Shown here: positions 6,977 to 45,056 of the stretch, in pieces | How positions within the stretch are numbered: position 1 is the stretch's first letter | Layout: each line of letters starts with the position of its first letter | Made by a program: the position numbers and the translations under genes | Origin: Peptococcaceae bacterium CEB3 | Lineage (GTDB): Bacteria > Bacillota > Desulfitobacteriia > Desulfitobacteriales > Desulfitobacteriaceae | NCBI GenBank assembly: GCA_001029295.1 | Contig: LDXJ01000064.1 | Span: 310,001-374,000 of the forward strand | Direction of reading: 5' to 3' | DNA: 64,000 nucleotides | Notes under the pieces: generated by a model | The model's input: the letters and a program-made list of their open reading frames with translations, nothing else | What the model was told of the DNA's origin: nothing | Databases searched by the model: none

Positions 6977-7301
6977 GTAAGAGCACTCCTTTGTTGCAAG
7001 ATAACTTGTAAACCACTCAATTCATAACCCGTCATAACCCGTTCCCCTTGGGAGACTACTTCCCTCGACTTCTGAGTCATGATTTTTTCCCGGTCGGCAG
7101 AAAGCCCCCCTTTAGGATGTAATGGCGGAGAGTGAAGCACATAACATAGCATATAGGGGATCCGCTCTCTTGGCAAGCTGCCCGGACCGGCGCAGACGCT
7201 TAATCTCCCTATGGCAGAAACCGACAGAAGCCAGGGGATGCGGCTAAGCTTTTTGCTCAAAGGAAAGACGAAGAATATTGTTACGATAGCTTGTATACCA
7301 C
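6977..7301. other. Intergenic stretch, no supported gene
   Basis: This region lies between the divergent methyltransferase gene and the promoter at 7302. It should hold the methyltransferase promoter on the reverse strand. The only open frames are short, lack ribosome sites and have no recognisable motif. Confidence 0.5.
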
Positions 7302-42098: not shown

Positions 42099-42298
42099 GA
42101 GCCGGGGGCCGTATATTCCACCTCAATTCATCTACATGCGTCAAAGTAAGGTTTTCAAGGCAGGCCCAAATAGGGGTACCTTTAACTGTATCCTCCTTGG
42201 GCACTATGTTCAAAGTTCGGAATTTTTAGTTTAAGGAACAGTAACGGCATGGTCAGGATGTGTACGTGTGCCTGCGGGAACAAAAAGGGGGAACAAGA

Positions 42299-42880
42299 AT
42301 GGACAAGCTCAAGGCAAAAAGGTCAGCTCTGATCAAAATGCTGGTGGTTTCTCTGGTGATCGTCACCGCGCTAATCGGGTGCGGACAAAGCAACACTCTT
42401 TCTTCCCAACAATCAGCCGACAGCAATCGGGCTCCTCAAAAAGGCGGAGTGTTCAAGACGTGGATGCAAGATGATCCCAGGAGTCTGGATCCCGCTCACT
42501 GCGGAGATATTCCGTCATGGGATATCCAGATGAATATTTATGACGGATTGTTAAAGTGGGATAAATCCGGTCAAAAGATCATTCCCGACCTCGCGGTGGC
42601 TATGCCAACAGTCAGCAACGGTGGCCTAACCTATACCTTCCGGCTGCGTCAGGGGATTAAGTTCCAGAACGGAGACCCATTCACGGCGGACGATGTCGTC
42701 TATTCGATTAACAGACTGGCCTCAAAGAGTATCGCTTCCGAAGGGGAGTCTTACTACTCCATGATTAAAGGTATGGACGACGTGTTTAACGGCCGGGCGA
42801 CGACGGTCTCAGGTGTGGTCAAGAAAGGTGAGTACACTGTTGAGTTTGATTTGAACCAACCGACCCGCACCTTCCTTGAC
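42299..42880 (+). pseudogene. Peptide-binding lipoprotein, N-terminal fragment broken by a TnpB element
   Basis: About 194 codons of a family 5 binding protein. The signal peptide has the lipobox LIGC, then GGVFKTWMQDDPRSLDPAHCGDI, DLAVAMPTVSNGGLTYTFRLRQGIKFQNGDPFTADDVVYS and YTVEFDLNQPTRTFLD. AAAGGGGGA precedes ATG 42299. The native frame ends at the insertion point (42880), and three more codons from the element give a TAG at 42890-42892. The C-terminal part lies beyond the element at 44583. Together they have about 350 residues; the family has 500-550, so roughly 150-190 codons of the middle are gone. Confidence 0.85.
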
Positions 42881-43026
42881 CATAAGGCTTAGCCGCATGC
42901 CCCTGGATTTATCCATGGGGTAAGGCATCGGAAATACATGAATCCTTAAAAAGTGTCTTCCATAACAGGTAACTTGGTAATATAATCTAGGTAGAACTTA
43001 TATTCGATGAAGGAGGTGAAATAGAA

Positions 43027-44550
43027 ATGAAGGCGAATATCAAAAAGTCTGAATCATTCGTCTGCGAAGTCCCCCTACGGGTTTCTGAGACCCATGCAAA
43101 AATCCTTAATGCCCGCTTTGAAGCGGCTCGGCAGATGTATAATGCCCTTTTAGGCGAAGGCCTGCGCCGGTTAAGTCTCATGCGTCAGTCCATAGCTTAT
43201 AATCGAGCCAGGGCCATCCCTCCAACCGATTCCTTACGGCAGAATGAGCGTTCCAATCTCTTTAAGCAAGCCAGGGATACCTATGGGTTCTCGGAATACG
43301 CACTTTCACGGTACGCAACCCAAGTACGGGATTCCTGGTTGGGTGAGCACCTAGATGCCCATACCGTTCAGAAGTTAACCAAGCGGGCTTTCAGCGCTGT
43401 ATCACGGGTAGCCTATGGCAAGGCCAAGAAAGTTCGGTTCAAAGGGAAACGCAGGCTGCACTCGGTCGAGGGGAAAAGCCAGGGTTCGGCGATAAAGTGG
43501 AAAGAGGATCAGGTCGTATGGTCTGGAATCAGTCTTCCCCTAGTAAAAGATGCTCTTAAAGATCCTGTCATCGCTTACGGGTTGTCCCACCGGGTAAAGT
43601 ACGTCCGACTTGTTCGACGGGTTATTAACGGCAAAGACCGGTTTTATGCTCAACTAGTTTTAGAGGGCAAACCGTATCAAAAGCCGGAACACATACTCGG
43701 GACAGAGATTGTGGGCCTAGACATCGGGCCTTCGACCCTTGCTCATGTGGGCGAGACACAAGCGGCGCTCACAATGTTTTGCGAACCGATTGTACGTAAT
43801 CACCGGGAGATCCGGCGGCAGCAGCGGCATATCGATCGGCAGCGGCGGGCTAATAATCCGGATTGCTACGATGAGAAAGGCCGGGCCATCAAGGGCCAAC
43901 ATCCCAGCAAGAAGAGTCGCCGTATGAAAGCGTCTCTGGGGAAACTATCAGAGATGTTTCGCAAAGAAGCAGCTTACCGTAAATCATTGCACGGACGGTT
44001 AGCGAATCAGATACTGTCCGTGGGGATTAACATAAATACCGAAAAGCTCTCGTACAGAGCTTTCCAAAAAACCTTTGGCAAATCAGTGGGAGTGCGTGCT
44101 CCGGGCATGTTTGTCGAAATACTTCAACGCAAGGCTGAAAGTGCTGGCGGCGGAGTTTATACATTCAACACCCGGACAACCGCATTATCTCAAATGTGCC
44201 ACTGTGGAGAGAAACACAAGAAGCCGCTGAAGCAGAGAGTCCACGAATGTACGTGCGGGGTCGTGATGCAACGGGATCTCTACAGTGCGTATCTCGCCCG
44301 GTTTGTCAAAGACGATGTTCTCCACGCAACCGAGGCAAGTTTGGCTTGGTCAGGTGCGGAATCGCTCCTGCGGGCGGCGTGGAGGAATTCACAACAACTT
44401 GCGAGTGGCAGGGCCGTCCCTGCCTCCTTCGGAGTCTTTCGGAGTCAGAGCGAGTCGTCCGAGAAAGAGGACTTGGTTGAGCGTAAGAGTTTGGATGTTG
44501 TAGCTTTCGAGCGAGAGCCAATCAGAGCGCAGTCAATTGTAGGTTCTTAG
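43027..44550 (+). CDS. tnpB: RNA-guided nuclease TnpB (OrfB family)
   Basis: A 507-residue TnpB. The RuvC catalytic residues appear intact: D232 in VGLDIGPST, E339 in NINTEKLSYRAF and D417 in QRDLYSAYLAR. The zinc-finger cysteines are C391, C393, C408 and C410 (CHCGEKHKK...HECTCG), slightly different from the usual CPxCG. The N-terminal 200 residues are the basic wedge/REC-like RNA-binding region. A promoter-like TATAAT (about 42979) and AAGGAGGTGA precede the ATG. The C-terminal 90 residues extend beyond RuvC III, and their DNA probably doubles as the 5' part of the guide RNA. It is larger than typical TnpB proteins (about 400 residues). Confidence 0.9.
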   Translation: MKANIKKSESFVCEVPLRVSETHAKILNARFEAARQMYNALLGEGLRRLSLMRQSIAYNRARAIPPTDSLRQNERSNLFKQARDTYGFSEYALSRYATQVRDSWLGEHLDAHTVQKLTKRAFSAVSRVAYGKAKKVRFKGKRRLHSVEGKSQGSAIKWKEDQVVWSGISLPLVKDALKDPVIAYGLSHRVKYVRLVRRVINGKDRFYAQLVLEGKPYQKPEHILGTEIVGLDIGPSTLAHVGETQAALTMFCEPIVRNHREIRRQQRHIDRQRRANNPDCYDEKGRAIKGQHPSKKSRRMKASLGKLSEMFRKEAAYRKSLHGRLANQILSVGININTEKLSYRAFQKTFGKSVGVRAPGMFVEILQRKAESAGGGVYTFNTRTTALSQMCHCGEKHKKPLKQRVHECTCGVVMQRDLYSAYLARFVKDDVLHATEASLAWSGAESLLRAAWRNSQQLASGRAVPASFGVFRSQSESSEKEDLVERKSLDVVAFEREPIRAQSIVGS

Positions 44551-44582
44551 AACCCCCTGGCTTTAGCCATGGGGAGATTCAG
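44400..44582 (+). ncRNA. Predicted omega (reRNA) guide scaffold of TnpB
   Basis: In IS200/IS605 elements the guide RNA is made from the 3' end of tnpB through the right-end hairpin, and its guide is the flanking DNA. The hairpin at 44554-44574 is visible. The 5' limit is a guess from known scaffold lengths. The guide would begin at about 44583 in the broken binding-protein gene. Confidence 0.5.
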
Positions 44583-45056
44583 ATGCGCAACGTCTTGGCA
44601 GCCAATCTCCAGTCTCAGTTGGCTGCGGTTGGGATCAAAATCAAATTGAACGCCGCGCCTTTCCCCAAATATCTTGAGGTGAAGGGAAAGGGCAACGCAG
44701 ACCTATTTTTCGGAAATTGGATACAAGACTACCCAGATCCTGACGATTTTCTGAACATCCTGTTCAATAGCAACCAGATTCCATCCAACAACAATGTCTG
44801 CTATAGTAACCCGGCTGTGGATAAACAACTCAATTCGCTCGCTTCGGAAACAGATCTCCAGAAAGCGATTCCGGGGTATCAGGCGGTGCAAAAACAAATC
44901 CTTTCCGATGCCGCGATTACGCCGCTCTACTATCCCAAAGGGTACTACCTTGTGCAACCTTGGGTCCATAATGCGGAATTGAATCCCGCCTACCCGTATT
45001 TCTATTATCTGACCATGTGGATTGACAAGGGAGCTGAGAAGGCCGCCACAAAATAG
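44583..45056 (+). pseudogene. Peptide-binding lipoprotein, C-terminal fragment
   Basis: The last 157 codons of the broken family 5 binding protein: NLQSQLAAVGIKIKLN, then ADLFFGNWIQDYPDPDDFLNILFNS, YSNPAVDKQLNSLASETD and a terminal PLYYPKGYYLVQPWVHNAELNP. It has no ribosome site of its own. The frame would continue that of the N-terminal fragment if the element were excised cleanly. No permease or ATPase genes follow, so this binding protein was already an orphan or lost its partners. Confidence 0.85.

What the first reader, a model, noticed from the sequence alone, without database searches (positions are those of the whole stretch)
42881..44602. TnpB element with likely intact RuvC sites and a readable TAM and guide
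TnpB keeps D232, E339 and D417 and has four zinc cysteines, but is about 100 residues longer than usual. Matching hairpins mark both ends. The left end abuts TTGAC, which predicts the TAM, and the flank from about 44583 predicts the guide. No TnpA is present, so TnpB has no partner here.
Basis: partly seen in the sequence, partly recalled or inferred. Interest (0 to 1): 0.6.

Follow-up and report, generated by a model that had tools for sequence, protein, structure and literature searches.

The report
TnpA-less TnpB element inserted after TGAC
This is an ordinary bacterial jumping gene that carries an RNA-guided DNA cutter (TnpB) and its guide RNA but has lost its own transposase; close copies and empty sites in a sister species fix its ends exactly and show its target motif is TGAC.

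Summary
A 1702-bp IS200/IS605-type element (42881-44582) carries a TnpB with conserved D232, E339, D417 and four cysteines. Corrections: (1) the target motif, hence the predicted TAM, is the 4-mer TGAC; the fifth base of TTGAC is background. (2) The extra ~100 residues are mostly the ORF reading into the guide-RNA scaffold: synonymous divergence falls about fivefold from residue ~433, the RNA covaries, and residues 460-507 have no predicted fold. (3) TnpA is absent here and no cognate TnpA was found in the assembly, but relatives carry one directly upstream of tnpB: this is a TnpA-less derivative whose TnpB stayed under purifying selection. (4) This copy's flanks are not one empty site: about 630 bp of the interrupted solute-binding-protein gene is missing, apparently from one TGAC to a second, so left-end motif and guide come from two sites. 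The genus also holds dozens of 47-69-nt mini-elements with the same ends. Known kind; low to moderate interest.

The parts
42876..42880 (+). Flanking target sequence TTGAC (core TGAC 42877-42880); predicted TAM type
   Evidence: TGAC directly before the left end in 46 of 63 rows; exact empty sites of two sister copies
42881..44582 (+). Whole TnpA-less IS200/IS605-type element, 1702 bp
   Evidence: Same length in copies C35 and C45; empty sites in A. acetoxydans place both ends of those copies
42900..42920 (+). Left-end hairpin (subterminal)
42981..42986 (+). TATAAT, possible -10 box of a tnpB promoter (weak: the consensus scan found no promoter)
43010..43019 (+). Ribosome-binding-site-like AAGGAGGTGA
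43027..44550 (+). tnpB ORF, 507 aa; codons of D232 43720-43722, E339 44041-44043, D417 44275-44277
44323..44582 (+). Predicted guide (omega) RNA scaffold, overlapping codons 433-507 of tnpB; covarying helices from about 44371
   Evidence: covariation; synonymous constraint
44554..44574 (+). Right-end hairpin
44583..44602 (+). Predicted 20-nt guide of this copy (host flank)
42260..42892 (+). 5' part of the interrupted SBP_bac_5 solute-binding-protein gene (the ORF runs into the element)
44583..45056 (+). 3' part of the same gene; about 211 codons between the parts are missing relative to paralogues

Best explanation
A TnpA-less derivative of an IS200/IS605-type element. Inferred mechanism: a single-strand Y1 transposase acting in trans inserted it 3' of TGAC without target duplication; TnpB plus an RNA from the element's right end (scaffold about 44323-44582, guide from 44583) forms an RNA-guided nuclease that cuts TGAC-flanked matches to the guide, that is, the emptied site, and so favours retention or copying of the element. 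Shown here: boundaries, target motif, family, conserved catalytic residues, covarying RNA overlapping the 3' end of tnpB, purifying selection on TnpB, absence of tnpA. Inferred from family knowledge: RNA processing, nuclease activity and retention. In this copy the right flank was replaced by a deletion of about 630 bp, apparently between two TGAC sites of the host gene, so its guide points to the second site.
For: Family: NF040570 over cut-off; AlphaFold model (mean pLDDT 80.4) whose best PDB match is the ISFba1 TnpB complex 8iaz, with ISDra2 TnpB 8exa and the TnpB complex 8h1j also matched. Ends and motif: exact empty sites for both sister copies; TGAC before 46 of 63 left ends. Guide RNA: 52 pairs, 97.7% of cells paired, 14 pairs changed on both sides, 0 of 500 shuffles as high on covariation score; slid controls have at most 3 such pairs. 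dS of window against A. acetoxydans is 1.07 in residues 8-420 and 0.15 in 421-507; synonymous changes 170.9 of 304.3 sites before residue 433 and 5.75 of 54.0 after (Fisher 2e-10). dN/dS 0.11 and 0.16 over residues 8-420 between the window copy and its two TnpA-less sisters. TnpA directly upstream of tnpB in relatives.
Against: No transcript, RNP or cleavage data. No consensus promoter was found in 42800-44800. The single-sequence folding z-score of the scaffold is weak (-1.35). No TnpA close to the family's own was found in the assembly (best 42% identity), so present mobility is doubtful. The guide has no TGAC-flanked match elsewhere in the genome at up to 3 mismatches, so there may be nothing for it to cut today.
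Confidence: 0.88

Rival explanations
1. Dead passenger: the element is a fossil whose TnpB no longer works; it persists only because the host gene is already broken.
For: No cognate TnpA in the assembly; no TAM-flanked target for the guide at up to 3 mismatches; host gene lost about 211 codons; many decayed pieces of the same family around.
Against: ORF intact in all 3 copies; catalytic residues conserved; dN/dS 0.11-0.18 between the copies; RNA scaffold kept (137-142 bits in all three).
Confidence: 0.2
2. The missing 630 bp is an assembly artefact: two copies of the element lie 630 bp apart in the gene and the assembler collapsed them.
For: The genome is in 64 contigs; both junctions look like TGAC insertion sites, which two insertions would give.
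Against: The three known copies differ by 5-7% of protein residues and were kept apart by the assembler; the contig is 586 kb. The missing piece itself was not searched for in the assembly.
Confidence: 0.15
3. The C-terminal extension is a functional protein domain rather than RNA read as protein.
For: Helix 434-454 is predicted with high confidence; the frame stays open in relatives; dN/dS of the tail is 0.57 rather than 1 against A. acetoxydans.
Against: Residues 460-507 have pLDDT under 50; synonymous divergence there is about fivefold lower than in the body; pairs covary across the same bases.
Confidence: 0.1

Closest known systems
ISDra2 TnpB and reRNA (Deinococcus radiodurans; PMC8612924, passages read)
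   Same: TnpB guided by an RNA from the right end; target of TnpA equals the TAM; insertion 3' of the motif without duplication; RuvC active site
   Different: TTGAT there, TGAC here; ISDra2 carries tnpA, this copy does not; TnpB 408 aa there (start of the abstract of PMC10821889 in the listing), 507 here
IS608 of Helicobacter pylori (TTAC target, as stated in PMC8612924)
   Same: Four-base target; more distant relatives of this family in Alicyclobacillaceae and Sulfobacillus abut TTAC
   Different: TGAC in this clade; no tnpA in this copy
Full IS605-type relatives: L053/L148 (Bacillota MAG SKS1.bin106) and L052/L131 (A. acetoxydans)
   Same: TnpB 82-85% identical; left end alike; right end alike in A. 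acetoxydans
   Different: They carry tnpA directly upstream of tnpB; in A. acetoxydans that tnpA has an in-frame stop, and the tnpB of L148's genome has one
PATE-like ends-only elements (PMC7290912, passages read)
   Different: Here dozens of copies, mostly 47-69 nt; the one published for Halanaerobium keeps 58 nt of tnpB and a 160-nt right end

Membership tests
TnpB RNA-guided nuclease | Family model match | tested here: met
   NF040570 114.2 bits, cut-off 100; PF07282 33.8 bits, cut-off 26.3
TnpB RNA-guided nuclease | RuvC D-E-D residues and zinc-finger cysteines | tested here: met
   D232 and D417 in all 11 rows and E339 in the 9 rows of the wider family in alignment A3; the two most distant rows are not aligned well at E339. 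The match of these residues to those of solved TnpBs was read from profile alignments only
TnpB RNA-guided nuclease | TnpB/Cas12f fold | tested here: met
   Model m99f0860ad4db against PDB: 8iaz E 2.9e-14
TnpB RNA-guided nuclease | Structured RNA at the right end, ending at the element boundary | tested here: met
   (comparative; expression not tested)
TnpB RNA-guided nuclease | RNA-guided cleavage next to the TAM | not testable with these tools
   Needs protein and RNA
IS200/IS605 element | Subterminal hairpins, insertion 3' of a fixed short motif, no target duplication | tested here: met
   the empty sites are those of the two sister copies, not of the window copy
IS200/IS605 element | Own Y1 transposase TnpA | tested here: not met
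   None in this copy or on contig C64; present in relatives. So it is a TnpA-less derivative, not a full IS605 element

The most novel reading that the evidence does not exclude
Guide switching in place: the transposase (or recombination between two copies) joined this element's right end to a second TGAC about 630 bp downstream, deleting the DNA between. The element kept its left flank but gained a new guide and a new protected target without moving.
Probability: 0.3. Interest if true: 0.5.

Novelty: new member of a known kind. Interest (0 to 1): 0.32.

Why it matters
It is a well-bounded natural test case: three TnpA-less TnpB copies of equal length, a sister species with exact empty sites for two of them, a covarying guide RNA, and a swarm of ends-only elements that give the target motif without an experiment. 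It suggests that TnpB can stay under purifying selection after tnpA is lost, and it gives a four-base TAM prediction (TGAC). If the flank deletion was made by the transposase, it would show how such an element can change its guide without moving.

Tried and rejected
Stand-alone guide RNAs acting in trans: a covariance model of the last 131-151 nt of 19 copies (R1) was searched in 41 genomes. All 6 matches over 130 bits (three in the own genome, one each in G001, G003 and G041) lie at the right end of an element of this family; a seventh at 116 bits is cut by a contig end. The remaining 9 of 16 matches are weak (27-50 bits); those I looked at in the own genome, A. acetoxydans and G041 are decayed pieces or mini-elements. 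No intact tnpB-less guide RNA was found.

Exaptation of the scaffold: the 5' half of the scaffold lies upstream of the same ABC-transporter gene in the own genome and in A. acetoxydans (L110, L207). That leader is clearly less conserved than the gene beside it, so I read it as a shared decayed remnant, not a conserved regulator.

TTGAC as a five-base motif: rejected. The mini-elements were found with queries that contained the TGAC, a small bias; the counting scan used only the element's own first 23 bases. The 63 rows are kept as scanned: they include one misregistered row (L166), one spurious row (L196), two overlapping rows (L182), a few pairs of orthologous sites, and at least two left ends (L151, L193) whose own hairpin was taken for a right end.

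Right end TTCAG: the scan required TTCAG, so it is not an independent count; all 19 rows of A2 end so, while the distant Methanoperedens copy L061 does not clearly do so. Related loci left out of A2: L053, L057, L059, L061, L152 and the duplicate L153.

phmmer against PDB found nothing useful with the single protein; the profile did.

ISTfu1, which I recall as having a TGAC TAM, was not found in the paper library; this stays recall. I also recall, without a call, that long TnpBs with this kind of tail are common; the plasmid search shows 36 records with relatives, all under 60% identity, the best one (Scytonema) matching to query residue 501.

Full report
What is there. The window is G000:C64:310001-374000, in a 5.3-Mb genome of the same genus as G001. 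G001 and the record NZ_LR746496.1, Acididesulfobacillus acetoxydans, have the same length and the same TnpB copy, so I call G001 A. acetoxydans. The ORF 43027-44550 encodes a 507-aa TnpB. D232, E339, D417 and cysteines 391, 393, 408 and 410 are present.

Ends. Two more full copies exist in the genome (C35, 95% identical protein; C45, 93%); all three elements are exactly 1702 bp. For C35 the A. acetoxydans genome reads CTCTTTCTGAC directly followed by GAAGCATCC, and for C45 GGAGTTGAC directly followed by TTTCAAGCG: left and right flank meet with nothing between and no duplication. For C45 only the right flank and a few bases of the left one are alignable. So the element starts right after TGAC and ends with TTCAG.

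Motif. Scanning the fetched loci for the left end gave 63 rows. The four bases before it are TGAC in 46 of 63; the base before that is T in 16 of those 46, against 188 of 554 TGACs in the window. The target is TGAC. Since in ISDra2 the TnpA target and the TnpB TAM are the same sequence (PMC8612924, passages read), TGAC is the predicted TAM. More distant relatives abut TTAC (4 of the 5 left ends that I read from Alicyclobacillaceae, Sulfobacillus and Bacillota MAGs at about 60% identity: L054, L055, L056, L067, not L060), so the motif changes between clades.

Guide RNA and the extra length. The last 250 nt of 19 copies were aligned. The consensus structure has 52 pairs; 97.7% of cells pair, 14 pairs have changes on both sides, and none of 500 shuffles reaches the covariation score; sliding the partners by 1 to 3 columns leaves 0-3 such pairs. 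The measure 'further pair types' did not exceed the shuffles (200 of 500 as high). This region overlaps tnpB. Between the window copy and A. acetoxydans, synonymous divergence is about 0.56 per site up to residue 432 and 0.11 after it (170.9 of 304.3 against 5.75 of 54.0 sites; Fisher 2e-10); dN/dS is 0.09 in residues 8-420 and 0.57 in 421-507. The AlphaFold model is confident to about residue 459 and disordered from 460 to 507. So a helix to about residue 459 may be protein, while the rest of the extra length is best read as guide-RNA scaffold translated by overlap. [quoted passage not shown]

TnpA. Relatives carry a Y1 transposase directly upstream of tnpB: open in L053/L148, and with an in-frame stop in A. 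acetoxydans. The three own-genome copies lack it. Of 7 Y1 matches in the own genome, 6 match the family's TnpA at 1e-5 or better, the best at 42% identity. The three TnpA-less TnpBs have dN/dS 0.11-0.18 over residues 8-420 between each other, so TnpB appears to have been kept by selection after tnpA was lost, and the TnpA-less form spread, presumably with a TnpA in trans.

The insertion site. The element splits an SBP_bac_5 gene. Four paralogues (one in the own genome, two in A. acetoxydans, one in G037) align to the left part up to TTGAC and resume at about 44583; about 211 codons, roughly 630-640 bp, are missing. One A. acetoxydans paralogue reads AATGAC directly before the position matching 44583; the other three read AATAGC, AATAAC and, in G037, no such motif, so the second TGAC is inferred from one of four. 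The simplest reading is a deletion from one TGAC to another, by two insertions and recombination or by the transposase joining the right end to a second target. An assembly collapse is not excluded. The guide has one other match in the genome at up to 3 mismatches, preceded by ATGA, not TGAC.

Mini-elements. The genus carries many ends-only copies. Of the 46 rows with a measured length, three are the full copies, 41 are 47-69 nt and two are longer (237 nt in L128; 256 nt in L182, an artefact of overlapping rows); at least two of the 41 (L151, L193) are left ends of longer elements misread by the scan. The own genome and A. acetoxydans each gave 22 matches to one such element, which was the limit of candidates scored. 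They resemble PATEs (PMC7290912, passages read).

Fold and distribution. PDB matches of the model are ISFba1 TnpB (8iaz), Cas12f and ISDra2 TnpB. Relatives under 60% identity occur in 36 plasmid records of 72,556 and 10 phage records of 50,697.

Verdict.

Noticed in passing
window 7199-7255, minus strand: A 57-nt ends-only mini-element of the same family, with slightly decayed ends, after TTTGAG.
   Followed up: partly
L098 1258-1359 (G000:C62): The left-end promoter-like and ribosome-site region of this element, without its terminal hairpin, lies just upstream of an ORF that looks like a MoxR-type AAA ATPase (name from memory); possible co-opted promoter.
   Followed up: no
L110 1142-1291 and L207 396-500: 5' half of the guide-RNA scaffold without ends or tnpB, upstream of the same ABC-transporter gene in the own genome and in A. 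acetoxydans.
   Followed up: partly
L054, L055, L056, L067 left ends: Alicyclobacillaceae and Sulfobacillus relatives abut TTAC instead of TGAC, while right ends stay alike: a motif switch within one TnpB family.
   Followed up: partly
G000, 30 places: The genome holds 30 TnpB matches from several subfamilies, many truncated: rich in IS200/IS605 material.
   Followed up: no
L101, L105, L112, L114: 47-48-nt elements with a single hairpin that serves as both left and right end; unclear whether these move or are deletion products of the 58-nt form.
   Followed up: no
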